Of a stretch of 64,000 nt of DNA, positions 14,054 through 49,497 are shown one piece after another. Numbering within the stretch: the stretch's first letter is position 1; the number at the start of each line of letters is the position of its first letter. The stretch is from a virus, in IMG/VR virus record IMGVR_UViG_3300037606_000137, positions 1 to 64,000 of that record, one strand, 5' to 3'. Below the pieces are notes generated by a model that saw only the letters and a program-made list of their open reading frames with translations, was not told where the DNA came from and made no database searches. Both the position numbers and the translations under genes were made by a program.

Positions 14054-14569
14054 ATGGGTAAAAAAGCAGCAACAATAACTGTAGATAAACAATTTGTATT
14101 TAACAGTGATAACGTAGAAGAAATTATAGATAAACAATCGCAAGGATATGCATTACCACGATATATGAATCCATGGTTTAAAAATCAAATTGGCGTAAGA
14201 AAACCAGCATGTGTTTATGGTTGGTCTAAATTTGAATTAGATGAATTTATGAAATGTGCTGTAGATATTCATTATTTTGCAAATAACTATTGCCACATTA
14301 AAACAGAAGACGGACAAATTCGTCAAATGAAATTAAGAGATTATCAATATGATGTATTAAACTCATATACAAAAAACAGATTCACAATCAATATGTCGTC
14401 AAGACAAACAGGTAAATGTTTACACATGATAACCAAAGTATTATGTAAGATAAATGACAAAATAATTGAAATACCTATGTTTAAATTGTTATTTAAATAT
14501 AAGAAAAATAAAACTTTTTATGATTATATTAAATATCCAATTTATTGGATATTATGGAAATTAAATTAA
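14054..14569 (+). CDS. terL: Terminase large subunit, N-terminal extein plus split-intein N half
   Basis: 171 residues. Residues 1-121 are the terminase N-terminus and end in the Walker A element SSRQTGK. At C122 (codon 14417) an intein begins: CLHMITKVLCKINDKII is intein block A, followed by an aromatic/basic helix (TFYDYIKYPIYWILW) and a stop at residue 171. The rest of the ATPase resumes in the next gene after an asparagine-ending intein block. Protein trans-splicing would join G-K to T-I-T-A-A and rebuild the P-loop GKT. DNA packaging motor of the virion. Confidence 0.9.
   Translation: MGKKAATITVDKQFVFNSDNVEEIIDKQSQGYALPRYMNPWFKNQIGVRKPACVYGWSKFELDEFMKCAVDIHYFANNYCHIKTEDGQIRQMKLRDYQYDVLNSYTKNRFTINMSSRQTGKCLHMITKVLCKINDKIIEIPMFKLLFKYKKNKTFYDYIKYPIYWILWKLN
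14417..14569 (+). mobile_element. Split intein N fragment (50 residues) in terminase
   Basis: Starts with the nucleophilic Cys directly after the Walker A lysine. Contains block A only; block B is on the partner fragment, so the break lies between A and B, the atypical architecture known from the AceL-TerL/VidaL type rather than the usual split near the endonuclease site. Confidence 0.85.
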
Positions 14570-14613: not shown

Positions 14614-15057
14614 ATGAAAAAATTAATTAATAAAATTTTATTTAAATTAATAGAAAAAATAGAAAATCGACAATATAGAAATATTAATTTAGATCAAACA
14701 GATATATTAAAAAAGATAAATAATATATCATTTGTAGAAAATAAGAATATTTATGTTGATTCACCGGAAGGTTGGGTACAAGTTACAGAAATAAATGAAA
14801 CACAACCATTCAAAATACATTATATAAAAACTGAATCAAGTAAAGAATTATTTTGTGCGGATAATCATATATTATATGACAGTTTAGGACAAGAAATATT
14901 AGTTAAAGAATTAAATATAGGGCAAGATATAATCACATGTAATGGTACCGAAAAAATTATTGATATGTATGTATATAATAGTTCTAATGGTATGATAGAT
15001 TTATCTGTTGATAGTCCAGAAATGAATTATTATACAAATGGTATTTTATCACATAAT
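14614..15057 (+). mobile_element. Split intein C fragment (148 residues) in terminase
   Basis: Carries block B (FCADNH, the A-x-x-H position), block F (MIDLSVDSPEMNYY) and block G (GILSHN), with Thr as the +1 extein residue. It is longer than the N fragment. No endonuclease domain and no nuclease gene between the halves. Confidence 0.85.
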
Positions 15058-16863
15058 ACAATAACAGCAGCAATATCATTATTACATTATTGTATTTTTA
15101 ATACAAATAAGGGTGTAATGATAGTTGCGAATAAAGGTGAAACAGTAATTGAAATTTTAGATAAAATTAAGAACATTTATAAATTATTACCATTTTTTAT
15201 GAAACCAGGTATTATTAACTGGAATAGTAAATCGATAGTATTTGATAATGGTTGTAGAATTAAATCACAAGCACGTTCAAAAGAACCGGCAATTGGATTT
15301 ACTATTGATTATTTATATTTAGATGAATTTGCACATATACCAAGAAACATAATCAATCATTACTACAAAGCAGCAATTCCGACAGTTTCATCTATTAAGG
15401 GGTCTAAAATTGTAATAACATCAACACCAAACGGGGCTAATTTATTTAAAGAATTAGTTATGGGTGCAATGCTTCCAGAAGGACATCCTGATAAAAACAT
15501 GTATAAACTTATTAAAATATTTTGGCATCAAGTACCGGATGGTAAATTTGAAGATGGTGCGGTTGGAACACGATTAGATGCAAAAATTTATCCAAGTGAT
15601 ACAGAAATGCGTCAGTATGATTTAAATGTTAATGATTTATTTGAAAATTTAGTTAAATTAAAATTTAAAGTTGTAAAAGAAATTGAATCTAGTGATACGG
15701 GAGATCGTACAATTATTAGAGTGTTACATAAAGATGGTGTTTCAGATATAGAAACAATTAGAAATTTAAAAATAAATAAAATTGCTATATCAAAAATAAG
15801 TAATATTTCTAATTGGAAAGAGCAAGAAACAAAATTAATTGGTGGAGAAGAAGCATTTAATCAGGAATATAATATACAATTCATTGCAGGATCAAAAAGA
15901 GTATTAAGTGCAAGTAAAGCTAAAATATTAGAAGATAGAGCTGTAAATTATTTATTTAAAGATATAGAAATTTTAGAAAAACGTTTACCTTTTGAATATG
16001 GTGAATTACGTTGGTCACCGGATTATATTGAACATGAAAGAAATAAATATTATTGGGTTCCAGCTTTAGATATATCAGAAGGGTTGGGTCAAGATGATAC
16101 TGTAATCAACATATTTAGGCTTATGGTGCGTTCTAATGAATGGTTACAAGAAAATAAGGTACGTAATATATACGACGCTTTTTATTTAAAACAAACAGGT
16201 ATTTATAATTATAATAGAATAGAGCCTGATAGAGAATTAGCTGAATTATTTTATTTATTATTTTTTGAATATTTTAATCCTGAAAGAGTTAAAGCTGTTG
16301 TTGAATATAATGGACCAGGTTCAACATTTTTAGCTTCTATGCCAAGTGTATTTGGTGGTAATAATAAATATGGTAATTATATATTTACACGATACAAACA
16401 TAACATAGAAGATAAAAAGAAAAAAGTTGGTTTAAAAATAACACGTAATAAAAAATTATTAGTAAAAAAATATATTGATAATGTTGAAAGTGATGCAATA
16501 TATGTTGATGAAACAATAACATTAGATCAAATGGATAATTTTATTAAAGTACCTACACGTTCTGGTGATTTTACATATAAAGCAGATTCAGGTCATGATG
16601 ATATTGTTATGACAGAAGTGGGACTTGCTACATTTTTTGATACACAAGATTACAAAAATATGTGTTTATCATATTATAATGAATTACCAACAGATATACA
16701 AAAATTAATTGATGGTGCTTTAAACATTGATTATAATCCTGATGTTATAAGTTATAAAGGAGCAAGCAGAGCTTTAGCTAATTCTAAAAGAAGAAGTAAT
16801 GAAAGAAAAAATATAAATATTTTAAGAAATAATAATATTTTTAATAATTCTTTTAATAAATAA
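14614..16863 (+). CDS. terL: Split-intein C half plus terminase large subunit ATPase/nuclease
   Basis: 749 residues. Residues 1-148 are the intein C fragment: a basic N-terminal helix (KKLINKILFKLIEKIENR), block B-like FCADNHILYDS, and blocks F/G ending TNGILSHN (N148). The extein starts with T149 (codon 15058) and carries Walker B YLYLDEFAHI (D237, E238), the STPNG coupling motif, and a RNase H-fold nuclease with ALDISEG and GHDDIVM acidic residues. Needs trans-splicing with the 14054 product to be a functional motor. Own start 44 nt after the first gene. Confidence 0.92.
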   Translation: MKKLINKILFKLIEKIENRQYRNINLDQTDILKKINNISFVENKNIYVDSPEGWVQVTEINETQPFKIHYIKTESSKELFCADNHILYDSLGQEILVKELNIGQDIITCNGTEKIIDMYVYNSSNGMIDLSVDSPEMNYYTNGILSHNTITAAISLLHYCIFNTNKGVMIVANKGETVIEILDKIKNIYKLLPFFMKPGIINWNSKSIVFDNGCRIKSQARSKEPAIGFTIDYLYLDEFAHIPRNIINHYYKAAIPTVSSIKGSKIVITSTPNGANLFKELVMGAMLPEGHPDKNMYKLIKIFWHQVPDGKFEDGAVGTRLDAKIYPSDTEMRQYDLNVNDLFENLVKLKFKVVKEIESSDTGDRTIIRVLHKDGVSDIETIRNLKINKIAISKISNISNWKEQETKLIGGEEAFNQEYNIQFIAGSKRVLSASKAKILEDRAVNYLFKDIEILEKRLPFEYGELRWSPDYIEHERNKYYWVPALDISEGLGQDDTVINIFRLMVRSNEWLQENKVRNIYDAFYLKQTGIYNYNRIEPDRELAELFYLLFFEYFNPERVKAVVEYNGPGSTFLASMPSVFGGNNKYGNYIFTRYKHNIEDKKKKVGLKITRNKKLLVKKYIDNVESDAIYVDETITLDQMDNFIKVPTRSGDFTYKADSGHDDIVMTEVGLATFFDTQDYKNMCLSYYNELPTDIQKLIDGALNIDYNPDVISYKGASRALANSKRRSNERKNINILRNNNIFNNSFNK

Positions 16864-20842: not shown

Positions 20843-22558
20843 ATGAATTTAGATATATTTAGAGAAAAAGATTTAAGTGGTGCATTACGAAAAGAAGCAC
20901 ATGTTTCAAATAAATATCCAGAACAATACACATACATACTTGATTGGTGTTTGTTAAATAATTTATCAGATTTATCTTTTAAATTAAAGGTTTATCATGT
21001 GATAAATGATTTAAAATTTATACCTAAATGTACATGTACAAAAGAAGTAAATTTTAAAAATAGTGATTATGGTTATAATGAATATTGTAGTAAAAATTGT
21101 GTAAATGAATCTAATAGTGTTGTATTAAAAAGAAAAGAAACAAATTTAAAATTATATGGTACTGAAATACCACAAAATTTAGAACTGTTTAAAAAAAAAT
21201 CTAAACAAACAAATCAATTAAAATATGGTGTGGATTATCCATGGCAGAATCAAGAAATTAAAAAAAAATATATTAATACTATGATTGAAAGATATGGTGT
21301 TGATAATCCTAACAAAAGTAAAGAAATATTAATTAGAAGAATTGAATCATTTAAAAATAATATAGATAAATATAAAGAAACATATAAGAAAACAAATCAA
21401 TTAAAATATGGCGTAGATCATCCATGGCAAAATAAAGACATTCATAAAAAATGTATAAATAAAATATTAAACACAAAGTATGTAAACATAACGAACAAAA
21501 TCGGGACTGAATGTATTAAACAAGGTCATTTATTATTGAATATAGACTGGAATATAAAAGAAATTAGTTGTTTATGTAATAAACAACATACATATGAAAT
21601 AACTAATTATTTATTTCATAAACGCATCCTAGATAATATAAATACATGTACAATATGTAATAAAATTAATACATATTCTGGAGAAGAATTAAATTTAAGA
21701 AATTTTATTATAGACAATTATAATGGTACAATTATTTATAATAATAGAAAAATATTGAATGGAAAAGAATTAGATATTTATTTACCAGATTTGAATTTGG
21801 CTTTTGAATTCAATGGTTTATATTGGCACAGTGAAGCTAATAAATATAAAAACTATCATTTAGAAAAAACAAATAATTGTGCAGATAAAAATATAAAATT
21901 AATTCATATATGGGAAGATGATTGGTTATTAAAACAAGATATAGTTAAATCGATTATAAAAAATGCATTGAATAAAACAGATAATATAATATTTGGTAGA
22001 AAATGTGAAATACGTATAGTAGATAATAAAATAGCAAAACTATTTTTAATAAAAAATCATTTACAAGGTAATATTAACGCTAAATATAATATTGGATTAT
22101 ATTATTTAGATGAATTAGTATCATTAATGACATTTGGTAATTTACGTAAAAATTTAGGACAAAATACTATTAATATTAATGATTATGAAATGTATAGATT
22201 TTGTAATAAGTTAAATACAACAGTAATCGGTGGAGCAAGTAAATTATTTAAATATTTTAATAATAATTATACAATTAATACTATAATATCATATGCTGAT
22301 TATAGTAGATACACTGGAAATATTTATAAACAATTAGGTTTTGTATATGATAAATTAACCATACCTAATTATTATTGGATTATTGATAATAAACGATCTA
22401 ATCGATATAATTGGAGAAAAGACAAATTAGTTAAATTAGGATATGATAAAAATTTAACAGAAGTACAAATTATGCACAATTTAAAAAGTTTAAGAATATA
22501 TGATTGTGGTAATTTGAAATATATATTTAAAAATTCAAACGTTATGGGTAACAAGTAG
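20843..22558 (+). CDS. Freestanding homing endonuclease, Vsr-like (EDxHD) nuclease domain
   Basis: 571 residues. N-terminal Cys-rich element (CTCTKEV...EYCSKNC), then three LKYGVDxPWQNxEI-type repeats (~115-205) likely to bind DNA, a second Cys pair (CTICNK), and from ~280 a Vsr-fold nuclease: GKELDIYLPDLNLAFEFNGLYWHSE (split here by D and E near residue 320) and KLIHIWEDDW. C-terminal ~180 residues are a further conserved region. Inserted just after the sheath gene, flanked by copies of the sheath 3' end, so the sheath gene is its probable target. Confidence 0.8.
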   Translation: MNLDIFREKDLSGALRKEAHVSNKYPEQYTYILDWCLLNNLSDLSFKLKVYHVINDLKFIPKCTCTKEVNFKNSDYGYNEYCSKNCVNESNSVVLKRKETNLKLYGTEIPQNLELFKKKSKQTNQLKYGVDYPWQNQEIKKKYINTMIERYGVDNPNKSKEILIRRIESFKNNIDKYKETYKKTNQLKYGVDHPWQNKDIHKKCINKILNTKYVNITNKIGTECIKQGHLLLNIDWNIKEISCLCNKQHTYEITNYLFHKRILDNINTCTICNKINTYSGEELNLRNFIIDNYNGTIIYNNRKILNGKELDIYLPDLNLAFEFNGLYWHSEANKYKNYHLEKTNNCADKNIKLIHIWEDDWLLKQDIVKSIIKNALNKTDNIIFGRKCEIRIVDNKIAKLFLIKNHLQGNINAKYNIGLYYLDELVSLMTFGNLRKNLGQNTININDYEMYRFCNKLNTTVIGGASKLFKYFNNNYTINTIISYADYSRYTGNIYKQLGFVYDKLTIPNYYWIIDNKRSNRYNWRKDKLVKLGYDKNLTEVQIMHNLKSLRIYDCGNLKYIFKNSNVMGNK

Positions 22559-44763: not shown

Positions 44764-44797
44764 TAAAAAAAGCCGAATTAATATCCAGCTTTTTTTA
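44764..44797 (-). terminator. Topoisomerase operon terminator
   Basis: AAAAAAAGC...GCTTTTTTT stem overlapping the last codons and stop of the topoisomerase C-terminal gene. Confidence 0.65.
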
Positions 44798-46685
44798 ATG
44801 ATAAATTTAATTCATCAAGTTCAGTATTCCAAATTTCTTCGGGTGTTTTTAATTTATATAATTTTATTTCTAATTTCATATCTTTTGCTTGTTTTCTATA
44901 TTCATCATATTTTTCTTTTGATAAATGATATACTGGAATATTTAATAAATAATCATAATTATCATTATATTTATCAAATTCCATATCTTCTAAATTTTTA
45001 ATAATATCAGATTTAGATTTATTATTTATTAAAACAGCTCCATCAATTACGGCTTTAATAAAACATACAAGATTAAAATATCTAATGTATTGTTTTTCTA
45101 AAATTTTAATATATGATTCTTTACGTTTTATATAATATTGCAATCTTAAATCAAACCAAGTATTTAATAATTCTTCAGCAGTATTCCATTTAACAATTTT
45201 ATTATCTAAAAATGTATTCATATTATTAATAGATATATTTGCAGTTAATTTTAATAATGATTCTAAGTTATTAATTTTTGTTCCAGCATTTAATGTAATT
45301 GTTATATGTACTAATTCATCTGTAGAATTATCTAAATATGTTTTAATAATTTTATCATCACATAATTTATCTAAAATTGAAATATATTTATCTGTTGATA
45401 CATCTACCGGTAATTCTGTTATTAAAACTTGTAATTTATTTTTAGATAAAGTAAAAATACCTTTTGAAATATATGTATTTCTTTCTGCGTCCCAATCTAA
45501 ATCACCATTCCATTTATTATATGATGGATTAATTGCATATTTAATATCAGGTCGTGTTAATTTTTTTTGTATAACTTGAATCAATGCCATTGGATCATAT
45601 TTAGGTACGTCTGTAGACCAACCTGTACCAATTCCAGATGTACCATTTACTAAAAGTGTAGGTATAATAGGTAAAAAATATTCAGGTTCTATACGATCAA
45701 CATCTTCATATAAATAATTTAAAATTTGTTCATCTTCTTTTCTAAAAATTAAACTGGTAATTGGATTTAAATATGTGTAAATATATCTAGGACTTGCTGC
45801 AGATTTTGGATCACGTCTTGATCCAAAATTACCTTTTGGTATAAACATCGAAATATTGTTACTGAATACAAAATCCTGTGCCATATTAATAATAGTTCCA
45901 TACATGTTAGATTCGCCATGAGCATAATGTGTTTGTTCTGCAACATAAGCACCAAATTGTGCAACTTTAGTTTCTGCTTTTAAATTACGTTTAAAAGCAC
46001 CAAACATGATTTTTCTTTGAGACGGTTTGAACCCGTCAATTAAATGTGGTATAGATATAATATTATCATAATTACTAAATTGAATAAATTCAGTATCAAT
46101 AAAATCATTTATATTGTTTGGTTTTCCAAATTTATCTGGTAAAATTTCACCTTTATAATTTGTCATCCATTCTTTACGTTCATTAGCTCTTGTTTTATTA
46201 AAAACCAAATCAATTTTATCACTATCACGTTTATCGATAAATTTAAATTTAATTAAATGTTTATCAATATTTTTAAACATTTCTTTAATTTCAGGTGCTG
46301 TAATTGTACCTAAACCTTTATAATATTTTATAGTAAACCCATTTAATTTATCATTAACTTTATCTCTTTTATATTTATCAATATCGTAATACTCTTTAAT
46401 AACTTTACCTTTTGTAGCTTTTACAATAGGTGTTATAAATTCATAACAAAAACCTAATTCTAACAATTCAGGCCACATTTTATGTATAAAATTAATTAAT
46501 AAACCTTTAATTGAAATACCAAAACAATTATGTGTTAACATATATCCAAGTTCATGTTTAATATGAAATGTGTGATCATTTTCAATAGTTAAATCTATGC
46601 ATTTTGTTTCTTTGTTTATGTGTGAAATACTGTCTATTTTATGTATTTCATATTGACTCAAATCTATATTTATTTTTTCTATCAT
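44778..46685 (-). CDS. Split-intein C half plus topoisomerase II TOPRIM end/breakage-reunion domain
   Basis: 635 residues. Residues 1-53 are the intein C fragment (KCIDLTIENDHTFHI, ending MLTHN); the extein starts with C54. It then continues TOPRIM (ISIKGLLINF), YYKGLGTITAPEIKEMF, the winged-helix region IPHLIDGFKPSQRKIMFGAF, AYVAEQTHYAHGES and the catalytic tyrosine in SAASPRYIYTYL. This corresponds to T4 gp60 end plus gp52 in one chain, as in eukaryotic/giant-virus topoisomerase II. Starts with a 4-nt overlap to the endonuclease gene. Confidence 0.93.
   Translation of the reverse strand: MIEKINIDLSQYEIHKIDSISHINKETKCIDLTIENDHTFHIKHELGYMLTHNCFGISIKGLLINFIHKMWPELLELGFCYEFITPIVKATKGKVIKEYYDIDKYKRDKVNDKLNGFTIKYYKGLGTITAPEIKEMFKNIDKHLIKFKFIDKRDSDKIDLVFNKTRANERKEWMTNYKGEILPDKFGKPNNINDFIDTEFIQFSNYDNIISIPHLIDGFKPSQRKIMFGAFKRNLKAETKVAQFGAYVAEQTHYAHGESNMYGTIINMAQDFVFSNNISMFIPKGNFGSRRDPKSAASPRYIYTYLNPITSLIFRKEDEQILNYLYEDVDRIEPEYFLPIIPTLLVNGTSGIGTGWSTDVPKYDPMALIQVIQKKLTRPDIKYAINPSYNKWNGDLDWDAERNTYISKGIFTLSKNKLQVLITELPVDVSTDKYISILDKLCDDKIIKTYLDNSTDELVHITITLNAGTKINNLESLLKLTANISINNMNTFLDNKIVKWNTAEELLNTWFDLRLQYYIKRKESYIKILEKQYIRYFNLVCFIKAVIDGAVLINNKSKSDIIKNLEDMEFDKYNDNYDYLLNIPVYHLSKEKYDEYRKQAKDMKLEIKLYKLKTPEEIWNTELDELNLSLKKAGY
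46527..46685 (-). mobile_element. Split intein C fragment (53 residues) in topoisomerase II
   Basis: Blocks F and G only, ending LTHN with Cys as +1 residue; the usual C-half size for a split at the endonuclease site. Confidence 0.85.
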
Positions 46686-47719
46686 AAGTATATTATGTTT
46701 TTAATTATTTTTAATTGTTTTATTATGTCTATTAATATTTTTTCTTCTGGTACATTGTTTTCCCATAAAATAATAAGTGGTCCATTTGTTGATTCTATAA
46801 TTTGTTTATTTCTAATTTCATCATCTTTCCAAATTTCGTATGCATATTTCTTTTTTAATTTATGATAATAGTCTTTTTTGTAATTTCTTGGGTCACAGTG
46901 CCAAAATTGCCCAAAAAATTCTAAACATATATTATAATCTACTAAATAAAAATCTACAATTTTTGGTCTTATTTTGTTTAAAATATGAATTGGATATTCT
47001 TCGATATATTTAATATTGTATAATTCTAATGTTTGTTTAATTTTTTGTGATACTTTACTTATTTTTGTTCCAGTTGTAACTTTTATTAATTTTGCTAAAT
47101 ATGATTCATATTTAGTTTTACCTATATCATATCCAAATTTATTTATATACCAATCTAAAGTATTAGATTTTCCTATTTTATCACATCTCTCTTTATATTT
47201 TATTGGTCCGTCAATTTCACCATATCTTATAATATAACCAGCTAAATTTGTACGCTGTGATATTGGTACATTATCACCAGATTTATTTCTGTTTGGTAAT
47301 ACTATATATTGTGCATCTTCTAATGTTATTTTTTTTATTATTGATAAATATTTTGGATTAGAACCAATGTGTTCATATGTTTTTTTATCATATGATGTAC
47401 CCAATATTTTTAAACTTAAATCATTTTTACATTCAATACTATTACAAAAAAAACCACATTTATAGTATCTAGTAAATGTATAATTTTCATTATCTAATCT
47501 ATAAATAAAAAAAGAGTTTTTATTACAATTTCCACATTTTTCTATAGGTTTATCCTCAACATAATATCTTTTAATGTAATCATCAAATATTATATTATGT
47601 TTTCTTTTAACATGACTAATTAAACCACTATTATTATTTACTATTTTATTACATATTTTACAAGTCATACACATACCAAATTGTTTATATTTATATATTA
47701 ATTTTGGTATGTGTATCAA
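46682..47719 (-). CDS. Vsr-like (EDxHD) homing endonuclease between topoisomerase halves
   Basis: 345 residues. N-terminal C2H2-like element (CKICNKIVNNNSGLISHVKRKH), a second Cys cluster (CGNCNK), middle basic modules, and a C-terminal Vsr/EDxHD-type nuclease: KIVDFYLVDYNICLEFFGQFWHCD and YEIWKDDEIRNKQI, then LIILWENNV. Overlaps both topoisomerase genes by 4 nt, so it is the nuclease of the split intein and the three are translated as one operon. This matches the fractured-gene arrangement reported from metagenomes. Confidence 0.87.
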   Translation of the reverse strand: MIHIPKLIYKYKQFGMCMTCKICNKIVNNNSGLISHVKRKHNIIFDDYIKRYYVEDKPIEKCGNCNKNSFFIYRLDNENYTFTRYYKCGFFCNSIECKNDLSLKILGTSYDKKTYEHIGSNPKYLSIIKKITLEDAQYIVLPNRNKSGDNVPISQRTNLAGYIIRYGEIDGPIKYKERCDKIGKSNTLDWYINKFGYDIGKTKYESYLAKLIKVTTGTKISKVSQKIKQTLELYNIKYIEEYPIHILNKIRPKIVDFYLVDYNICLEFFGQFWHCDPRNYKKDYYHKLKKKYAYEIWKDDEIRNKQIIESTNGPLIILWENNVPEEKILIDIIKQLKIIKNIIYL

Positions 47720-47994
47720 TTTCTTTTTATTAATACTAAATCTGTGTATAGCAATGATTCTGCATAAATTACTATAGTTTCACCATTGCGTAATACAATT
47801 AATTTGTGTTGTTTACTACATAAATATTCAGTGCCTGAAACCATAAATGACACCATATCATTTTTTATAGATGCAATTATATTTATAACTTTTTTATATT
47901 CTCCGGTGTGTGTTAATACATAATCATCATATGTAATATTTTTTATTTTCTTTTCGCCATCTTTTGTTAAAACTATAGTATTTTCTTCTAAACA
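47716..47994 (-). mobile_element. Split intein N fragment (92 residues) in topoisomerase II
   Basis: Contains blocks A and B, inserted directly after the TOPRIM D-A-D; canonical split position, unlike the terminase intein. Confidence 0.87.
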
Positions 47995-49497
47995 GTCAGC
48001 ATCAGTAAAAAATACAATTTTACCATATCTTAATTCGTTTATATCTGTATATTTTTTACCCGGTACTAATCCAATAATTTTAATAATATTTGCTATTTCA
48101 TCATTATTAATTATTTTAGATACCGGTACATCTCTTACATTTAATGGTCTTCCTTTTATTGGAAAAACACCCCAATAATCTCTACCAACAACACTCAACC
48201 CTGTTATAACTGTTCCTTTTGCACTATCACCTTCTGTAATACAAAGTGTTGATTTATAACCACTTGTAGTTCCAGCTTTATGTGCATCAACTAATTTTTC
48301 TACACGAATTGTTTTACCAGCAGATTTTTTATTCATTTTATTCAATGCTGCTTGTTCTTTCATTAAAACCCATTCTAAAATAGATTCTATGATTTCAGAT
48401 TTCATTAATAATTTATATAATTTATCAGATAAATCAACATCATCTATAATTTTAGATATTAAATTTTCTTTTGTTTGTGCATCAAATTTAGGATTAGCTA
48501 TTTTACATATTAAAAACATGTGAAATTTATTTTTAATATCGTTTGGTTTAATATTAATACCTTTTCTACCTTTAGTTAAATCTGTTATTAATCTTTTAAT
48601 AACTTTACTCATTATAAAATCAACATGTGTTCCACCTTGCCATGTAGTATTACCGTTTATAATAGAACAGTGTTCAAATGTGTCTGTACTTGATTGTGTT
48701 AAACCAATATTCCATTTATCATTAATTTCTTCTTTAAATAATTCTGCATTTGGTTCTATATGTAATGACATCCAATCTGAAATATTATTAATTTTAATTA
48801 ATTCATCATTAAAATAAACTTTAATATTTGGATTGTATGCAGCAATATCATATGCTCTTTTAATACATAATTTCATTGTATCATTACTATAATCAGCTAT
48901 TGGTAGTCTTGTAATATCTGTATTATATGTTACACATGTATATGATTTTTTACATGGTTTTATAACGGGTTTTGTTTTATTTCTTGCATTATTTGATAAT
49001 TCTTGATAATAAGATTTAGATCCATCACCACAATCAATAATAAATTTTGATGAAAATAATGCAACACAACCAGAACCAACACCATTTCTACCAGCACCAT
49101 AACGTTCTTCGGTATCATTGTAATTCGACCCAGAATTTAAACGCCCTAAAACCATTTCAGGAACATACATATTATGTTCTTTATGAATTGTAACTGGAAT
49201 ACCTTCACCATCATTCCATACTTTAATAGTCCAATCGCTTTCTATATTAATTTTAATGGTTGTAACTTTTTTCCCCCTTTGTGCATGATCTGACGCATTT
49301 GTTATAATTTCATCATATAATTTCAAAAATCCGGGTATATATGTTAATGATTGTTTTCGAATATGATTATCTTCAAAACACCACATATCTTTAGTTTGTT
49401 CTTCAATAGAACCAATCATTGTATCAGGTCTAAGTAAAATTTGTTCTTCTTGACTTAATAATTTATATTCTTCTTCAACATTTATTTTTTTTACCAT
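47716..49497 (-). CDS. Topoisomerase II ATPase/TOPRIM start plus split-intein N half
   Basis: 593 residues. GHKL ATPase: EIITNASDHAQRG (N box), VWNDGEGIPV, GRNGVGSGCVALFS; transducer QGGTHVDF; TOPRIM EGDSAKGT...DYWGVFPIKGRPLNV and FFTDAD. At C502 (codon 47992-47994) the intein begins with CLEENTIVLTKDGEKKI (block A) and GTEYLCSKQHKLIVL (block B), ending at residue 593. Equivalent to T4 gp39 plus part of gp60. Must be trans-spliced to the 44778 product. Confidence 0.93.
   Translation of the reverse strand: MVKKINVEEEYKLLSQEEQILLRPDTMIGSIEEQTKDMWCFEDNHIRKQSLTYIPGFLKLYDEIITNASDHAQRGKKVTTIKINIESDWTIKVWNDGEGIPVTIHKEHNMYVPEMVLGRLNSGSNYNDTEERYGAGRNGVGSGCVALFSSKFIIDCGDGSKSYYQELSNNARNKTKPVIKPCKKSYTCVTYNTDITRLPIADYSNDTMKLCIKRAYDIAAYNPNIKVYFNDELIKINNISDWMSLHIEPNAELFKEEINDKWNIGLTQSSTDTFEHCSIINGNTTWQGGTHVDFIMSKVIKRLITDLTKGRKGINIKPNDIKNKFHMFLICKIANPKFDAQTKENLISKIIDDVDLSDKLYKLLMKSEIIESILEWVLMKEQAALNKMNKKSAGKTIRVEKLVDAHKAGTTSGYKSTLCITEGDSAKGTVITGLSVVGRDYWGVFPIKGRPLNVRDVPVSKIINNDEIANIIKIIGLVPGKKYTDINELRYGKIVFFTDADCLEENTIVLTKDGEKKIKNITYDDYVLTHTGEYKKVINIIASIKNDMVSFMVSGTEYLCSKQHKLIVLRNGETIVIYAESLLYTDLVLIKRN

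What the first reader, a model, noticed from the sequence alone, without database searches (positions are those of the whole stretch)
44778..49497. Fractured topoisomerase II: split intein halves with a homing endonuclease between them
Three minus-strand genes overlap by 4 nt each: topo N + intein N, Vsr-like nuclease, intein C + topo C. This matches the fractured-gene arrangement with an EDxHD nuclease described from metagenomes, here in a probable Bacteroidota phage and in the TOPRIM active site.
Basis: partly seen in the sequence, partly recalled or inferred. Interest (0 to 1): 0.75.

Follow-up and report, generated by a model that had tools for sequence, protein, structure and literature searches.

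The report
Mobile split intein in phage topoisomerase
A phage topoisomerase gene is cut in two inside its active site by a split intein that should rejoin the protein halves, with a selfish DNA-cutting gene in between; the same element recurs in other phages, so it looks like a mobile parasite of this gene.

Summary
A fused phage topoisomerase II is broken at TDAD|C in the TOPRIM motif: topo N + intein N (47716-49497), a nuclease, intein C + topo C (44778-46685). The nuclease/intein C overlap (ATGA) is real. The first 4-nt overlap is doubtful: it needs a TTG start, whereas homology and a 14-bp hairpin (47667-47716) point to an ATG start at 47674 or 47668.

The nuclease is Vsr/EDxHD-like (model Z 11.8 to Vsr, 9.1 to I-Bth0305I). 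The insert recurs at exactly the same site in at least five other phage topo genes; uninterrupted alleles exist at 70% (L001) and 80% (L250, sister of L011) identity. On the topoisomerase tree the six occupied genes need six changes, while the four nucleases tested form one clade (100/100). Inserts can be far more alike than their hosts (60% vs 31%): the signature of repeated horizontal gain at one site. In L170/L171 the same split intein holds a GIY-YIG-type nuclease instead.

Kind: a "fractured gene" as described in 2009 (original paper not readable here), in what may be a new host gene. Splicing and cleavage are inferred. The phage's terminase is also split by an intein.

The parts
47995..49497 (-). 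N-extein: ATPase/transducer and first half of TOPRIM of a fused phage topoisomerase II (501 aa, ends FFTDAD)
   Evidence: Pfam DNA_gyraseB 5e-16, HATPase_c 4e-6; phrog_543 topo II large subunit 1e-118; co-linear with uninterrupted L001
47719..47994 (-). Intein N half (92 aa, Cys1, block-B His63), followed by TGA 47716-47718
   Evidence: gp41-1 intein hits; alignment of six homologues: C1 and H63 invariant
47667..47716 (-). Hairpin: perfect 14-bp inverted repeat, 22-nt loop, covering the probable nuclease start codon
   Evidence: RNA fold z -3.97, 1 of 200 shuffles; hairpins at nuclease starts enriched 11/52 vs 9/344
47688..47695 (-). TATAAATA in the hairpin loop, identical to the T4 late-promoter box; function unproven
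   Evidence: sequence; motif not enriched in the window, 58 vs 51 expected
46682..47674 (-). Homing-endonuclease-like gene, 330 aa from ATG 47674 (ATG 47668 also possible; 345 aa if TTG 47719 is used)
47597..47665 (-). C2H2-like zinc-finger region at the nuclease N-terminus (residues 19-41)
   Evidence: Pfam zf-met E 0.0024, below the curated cut-off; C20 and C23 invariant in the topo clade
46685..47071 (-). Vsr/EDxHD-like catalytic domain (residues 217-345) with D256, E267, H274, D300
46682..46685 (-). ATGA: nuclease stop overlapping the start of the intein C/topo C gene
   Evidence: same overlap in L011, L014 and L169
46527..46685 (-). Intein C half (53 aa, ends LTHN, Cys+1 next)
   Evidence: own intein-C HMM E 2e-10 (HMM partly trained on this family); alignment; profile hits inteins 2jmz, 6qaz weakly
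44778..46526 (-). C-extein: rest of TOPRIM plus topo A-like cleavage domain (582 aa, starts CFGISIKGLL), stop included
   Evidence: Pfam TOPRIM_C 2e-32, DNA_topoisoIV 2e-95

Best explanation
This is a mobile fractured-gene element. The two topoisomerase precursors are translated separately; their intein halves associate and trans-splice (class 1, Cys1 / C-terminal Asn / Cys+1) so that TDAD is joined to CFG and an active one-chain topoisomerase II forms. The nuclease, a zinc-finger-like plus modular DNA-binding protein with a Vsr/EDxHD catalytic domain, cuts uninterrupted TOPRIM codons in co-infecting phages, and repair copies the 1.47-kb insert together with the Cys+1 codon. A hairpin over the nuclease start probably delays or limits nuclease translation. 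Shown by sequence: arrangement, exact site, uninterrupted alleles, insert phylogeny unlike host phylogeny, preserved catalytic residues. Inferred: splicing, cleavage, homing, hairpin control.
For: Exact insertion against uninterrupted L001: 50/60 and 55/60 nt identical on either side of the joint. Second pair L011/L250, 80% identical, uninterrupted SDED-GDG. Same codon occupied in six topo lineages. Topo tree: six changes for six occupied genes, all forced by strongly supported branches; the four topo nucleases included form one clade 100/100. Insert more alike than host: L011-L170 intein N 60% vs extein 31%; L013-L169 nuclease 50% vs 29%; window-L011 intein N 42% and nuclease 39% vs 27%. Nuclease lineages follow host gene (11 changes vs 27.6 shuffled, 0 of 200 as low). 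Catalytic residues: D256, E267, H274 in 56/56 and D300 in 55/56. Fold. Intein residues.
Against: No splicing or cleavage data. The hairpin is clear in the window, L013 and L169 only; L014 lacks it, L011 and L170 have none convincing. The first E of 'EDxHD' (E241) cannot be placed reliably across the family. The nuclease model is of moderate confidence (pLDDT 67.6, 4 sequences). Six changes could include losses as well as gains. L014's intein is no closer to the others than its host is.
Confidence: 0.85

Rival explanations
1. Genes in pieces without splicing: the two polypeptides assemble non-covalently into an active enzyme, as for T4 gp39/gp60 (split by mobA) and Aeh1 NrdA (split by mobE), and the intein ends are remnants.
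For: Precedent in phage T4 topoisomerase and Aeh1 NrdA (PMC2988022).
Against: Both intein halves keep all splice-site residues and end exactly at the joint in six lineages; T4-type splits carry no intein; the cut lies between metal-binding Asp residues and the rest of TOPRIM.
Confidence: 0.06
2. The element is no longer mobile: splicing still needed, but the nuclease is a decayed or repurposed passenger inherited vertically in this phage.
For: Homing cycles predict decay once a site is fixed; one topo insert (L170) has a different nuclease where the EDxHD gene would be.
Against: Open frame with catalytic residues kept at 37-42% identity; uninterrupted kin at 70% show the site is not fixed.
Confidence: 0.12
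3. A normal intein with an internal endonuclease domain, broken by sequencing or assembly frameshifts.
For: Order N-nuclease-C equals that of a contiguous large intein.
Against: Independent contigs, two of them seen in two samples each (L011/L012, L170/L171), have separate ORFs with their own starts, spacers and ATGA overlaps; one spacer region holds a different nuclease family.
Confidence: 0.02
4. The split serves the phage: late or limited joining regulates topoisomerase activity, and the nuclease is incidental.
For: Terminase of the same phage is also split by an intein, so more than one enzyme depends on trans-splicing.
Against: Uninterrupted alleles in close relatives show that the split is dispensable.
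Confidence: 0.05

Closest known systems
Fractured genes with split inteins and a free-standing (EDxHD/Vsr-like) endonuclease (Dassa et al. 2009, Nucleic Acids Res 37:2560; full text not held, described from memory)
   Same: Enzyme gene broken by split intein halves with a nuclease ORF between; phage DNA-metabolism enzyme; Vsr-like nuclease; control elements at the nuclease
   Different: Host gene here is topo II at the TOPRIM DxD motif (whether that was among their eight gene types could not be checked); two uninterrupted sister alleles; GIY-YIG-type nuclease found at the same site
I-Bth0305I, EDxHD homing endonuclease (PDB 3r3p)
   Same: Vsr-like catalytic fold (Z 9.1), long modular DNA-binding part
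   Different: I-Bth0305I is classed among group I intron endonucleases in the review read (PMC3943268); this one lies between split intein halves and has a zinc-finger-like N-terminus
gp41-1 split intein (PDB 6qaz, 6riz)
   Same: Closest solved relative of intein N; similar split point
   Different: Low identity; Cys+1 (gp41-1 has Ser+1, PMC11766414); different host gene
T4 topoisomerase genes 39/60 with mobA
   Same: Phage topo large subunit broken by an endonuclease gene (PMC2988022)
   Different: HNH-family nuclease, no intein, subunits stay separate
Hairpin-regulated T4 endonucleases (I-TevI, SegB, Aeh1 MobE)
   Same: Stem over the endonuclease start, TATAAATA in the loop (describes the mechanism)
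   Different: Late promoter use by this phage not established

Membership tests
Fractured gene (split intein + nuclease) | Host gene in two ORFs carrying intein N and intein C halves | tested here: met
Fractured gene (split intein + nuclease) | Separate nuclease ORF between the halves | tested here: met
   46682-47674, own start codon
Fractured gene (split intein + nuclease) | Uninterrupted relatives exist at the same site | tested here: met
   L001 and L250
Fractured gene (split intein + nuclease) | Halves trans-splice | not testable with these tools
   needs an assay
EDxHD/Vsr-like homing endonuclease | Vsr-like catalytic fold | tested here: met
   1cw0 Z 11.8, 1vsr 11.3, 3r3p 9.1; sequence profile hits only Vsr, E 1.4-2, not significant alone
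EDxHD/Vsr-like homing endonuclease | Conserved D, H and D of the motif | tested here: met
   D256, H274 in 56/56, D300 in 55/56; also E267 56/56
EDxHD/Vsr-like homing endonuclease | First E of the motif | tested here: inconclusive
   E241 conserved in the topo clade, unalignable in the wider set
EDxHD/Vsr-like homing endonuclease | Site-specific cleavage of the uninterrupted allele | not testable with these tools
   needs an assay
Class 1 split intein | Cys1, block-B His, C-terminal Asn, nucleophile at +1 | tested here: met
   C1, H63, N53 invariant in six; Cys+1 in all six
T4-like hairpin/late-promoter control of endonucleases | Stem that covers the start region | tested here: met
T4-like hairpin/late-promoter control of endonucleases | Late promoter inside the stem | tested here: inconclusive
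   TATAAATA present but not enriched in the AT-rich window
T4 genes-in-pieces topoisomerase (mobA type) | Break without an intein | tested here: not met
   intein halves at both ends

The most novel reading that the evidence does not exclude
The split intein at the topo II DxD motif is a long-lived site-specific platform that moves between distant phage lineages while its nuclease is exchanged (Vsr/EDxHD in five lineages, GIY-YIG-type in one). It enters at the one variable residue of the motif (D-x-D-[x]-D-G) and leaves its obligatory Cys there, and nuclease output is timed by a start-covering hairpin.
Probability: 0.4. Interest if true: 0.62.

Novelty: new member of a known kind. Interest (0 to 1): 0.5.

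Why it matters
It adds what may be a new host gene and site to a rarely studied kind of mobile element and supplies natural occupied/uninterrupted allele pairs at 70-80% identity, so homing by a fractured gene can be tested directly. It also gives a set of six divergent natural split inteins with Cys+1 for trans-splicing work, and shows that nuclease lineages in such elements follow the host gene they interrupt. Fractured genes are easily misread as broken genes in phage annotation.

Tried and rejected
Programmed frameshifting across the junctions: considered by reading the sequence; no convincing slippery site and separate starts in relatives. T4-type late promoters in this phage: TATAAATA not enriched overall or before genes. 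Operator resembling the homing site (I-TevI style): 14/17 matches exactly at the insertion point of L001, but 201 of 500 shuffles do as well; rejected as evidence. Single-sequence search of the nuclease against solved structures: nothing. Single-sequence search of viral contigs with the nuclease: nothing; the family appears only with an alignment. Genome-contig scan: one weak archaeal-MAG hit, not followed. Intein C alone against solved structures: no intein hit. GIY-YIG assignment of the L170 nuclease: no Pfam hit; rests on annotated Rhizobium phage homologues at 30% and the sequence. Dassa 2009 and Taylor 2011 are not held. A tally of 38 of 62 nuclease loci with an intein-C-like ORF downstream uses an HMM partly trained on the same loci.

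Full report
OBSERVATION. The window belongs to a 110,380-base virus record. Three minus-strand ORFs lie in a row: 47716-49497, 46682-47719 and 44778-46685. ORF 1 holds the ATPase/transducer and first half of TOPRIM of a type II topoisomerase, ORF 3 the rest of TOPRIM and the topo A-like domain. ORF 1 runs past TDAD into a 92-residue intein N half starting with Cys; ORF 3 begins with a 53-residue intein C half ending LTHN before CFGISIKGLL. Intein N is closest to gp41-1 among solved structures (E 1.2e-5; 7e-10 as a profile).

UNINTERRUPTED ALLELES. Contig L001 encodes a relative of the same topoisomerase (70% over 627 columns) as one 1,080-residue chain reading ...FFTDADHFGISIKGLL.... At the DNA level 50 of 60 bases before and 55 of 60 after the joint agree, with nothing missing. 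The insert is therefore 46527-47994. A second pair, L011 (occupied) and L250 (uninterrupted, 80% identical), shows the same thing in a distant topo lineage. In uninterrupted genes the residue after D-x-D varies (H, G, L, V, M, T, P and others); in occupied genes it is always Cys. I read this as the intein bringing its own Cys+1 into the one tolerant position of the motif.

CORRECTION. The overlap of 4 nt between ORF 2 and ORF 3 (ATGA) is real and also present in L011, L014 and L169. The overlap between ORF 1 and ORF 2 depends on a TTG start. The interval 47667-47716 is a perfect 14-bp inverted repeat with a 22-nt loop (fold z -3.97, 1 of 200 shuffles). Its 3' arm covers ATG 47674 and most of ATG 47668, and a start there gives a protein beginning like its relatives (MTCKIC.. 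against MKCKCLIC.. in L169). Comparable hairpins ending at the nuclease start occur in L013 and L169 with unrelated stem sequences, and across 52 nuclease starts strong inverted repeats are commoner than at 344 other ORF starts of the same loci (11/52 vs 9/344, Fisher p 5e-6). In T4, stems that hide the start of endonuclease genes, with a late promoter inside, are established for I-TevI and others (PMC2988022). The loop here holds TATAAATA, but that word is not enriched in this 23% GC phage, so promoter function is not shown.

NUCLEASE. Single-sequence searches gave little. Homologues opened from named phages each lie between split intein halves of another gene: PolB in Lak phages and in Klebsiella phage KP13-7, and ribonucleotide reductase in a 462-kb phage. 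A profile from these retrieves many loci. The best, L011, L013 and L014 (33-38% identity, full length), sit in topo II large-subunit genes between intein halves at the very same codon; L169 adds a fourth and L170/L171 a fifth lineage. D256, E267 and H274 are invariant in 56 sequences and D300 in 55. A structure model of moderate quality (pLDDT 67.6) matches Vsr (Z 11.8, 121 residues, 3.6 A) and the EDxHD enzyme I-Bth0305I (Z 9.1, 93 residues) over residues 217-345.

MOBILITY. In a tree of 56 nucleases the four topo sequences form one clade (100/100), and host-gene labels change 11 times against 27.6 when shuffled (0 of 200 as low; L169 was not yet known). On a tree of 32 topoisomerases the six occupied genes need six changes, all forced by well supported branches; four of them have an uninterrupted nearest neighbour or sister (L001, L250, L190, L176). 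The sample of uninterrupted genes was chosen by me, and some changes could be losses. Segment identities favour horizontal movement: L011 and L170 share 60% of intein N but 31% of the host protein; L013 and L169 50% of the nuclease against 29%; the window and L011 42% (intein N) and 39% (nuclease) against 27%. L014 does not show this excess.

NUCLEASE SWAP. In L170/L171 the ORF between the same intein halves is unrelated to the others (25-27%). Its relatives in Rhizobium phages are annotated as GIY-YIG nucleases, and its sequence has motifs of that kind by eye, although Pfam does not call it. So the intein pair appears to be a site that different nucleases can occupy.

MECHANISM AND RIVALS. 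The best reading is a fractured gene: trans-splicing restores the topoisomerase, and the nuclease spreads the insert. Non-covalent assembly as in T4 (mobA in the topo gene) is less likely because both intein halves are kept intact in six lineages. A broken contiguous intein is unlikely because independent contigs have separate ORFs with their own starts. Loss of mobility in this particular phage cannot be excluded.

KNOWN OR NEW. The kind is known (Dassa et al. 2009, cited in PMC3229294, PMC10448857 and PMC12350094; the paper itself is not held, and what I say of it is from memory). A topoisomerase member was not found in the papers that can be searched, but the 2009 list of eight gene types could not be read. 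I therefore file it as a new member of a known kind.

SECOND SPLIT GENE. The terminase large subunit of the same phage is also in two pieces: 14054-14569 ends ..SSRQTGK|CLHMITK.. and 14614-16863 begins with an intein part ending ..GILSHN|TITAAIS. The N fragment is short (about 49 residues) and no nuclease lies in the 44-base gap, resembling the atypically split AceL-TerL and GOS-TerL inteins (PMC11766414). A search of the whole record with an intein-C profile found just these two.

Noticed in passing
window 14054-14569 and 14614-16863 (+): Terminase large subunit is also fractured by a split intein at Walker A (RQTGK|C ... SHN|T), with a short N fragment and no nuclease between: AceL-TerL-like.
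   Followed up: partly
window 20843-22558 (+): Free-standing homing endonuclease (phrog_3339, DUF7487, Vsr-like ..EFNGLYWHSE..IWEDDW) directly after the 1,273-aa tail sheath gene; several viral contigs (L030, L034, L045, L062) also carry a Vsr-like nuclease gene just after a tail sheath-like gene.
   Followed up: partly
window 46512-46526 and L001 5986-6010: Third acidic residue of the TOPRIM DxDxD motif is Phe in the window and in L001 (TDAD-C/H-FG); the other topo genes inspected keep Asp.
   Followed up: no
L170 5836-7005 (= L171): Same split intein and site in topo II, but the ORF between the halves is a GIY-YIG-type nuclease.
   Followed up: partly
L006, L009, L010 (Lak phages, code 15), L008 (Klebsiella phage KP13-7), L007 (462-kb phage): Fractured PolB and ribonucleotide reductase genes with nucleases of the same family; not annotated as such in the records.
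   Followed up: partly
L053, L056, L064, L068, L079, L088, L250 7605-8441: Vsr-like or other nuclease-like ORFs next to what look like atypically (early) split inteins in ATPase/helicase-like genes.
   Followed up: no
L018 2794-3903: Nuclease of the recA-insert clade standing alone beside an uninterrupted recA-like gene.
   Followed up: no
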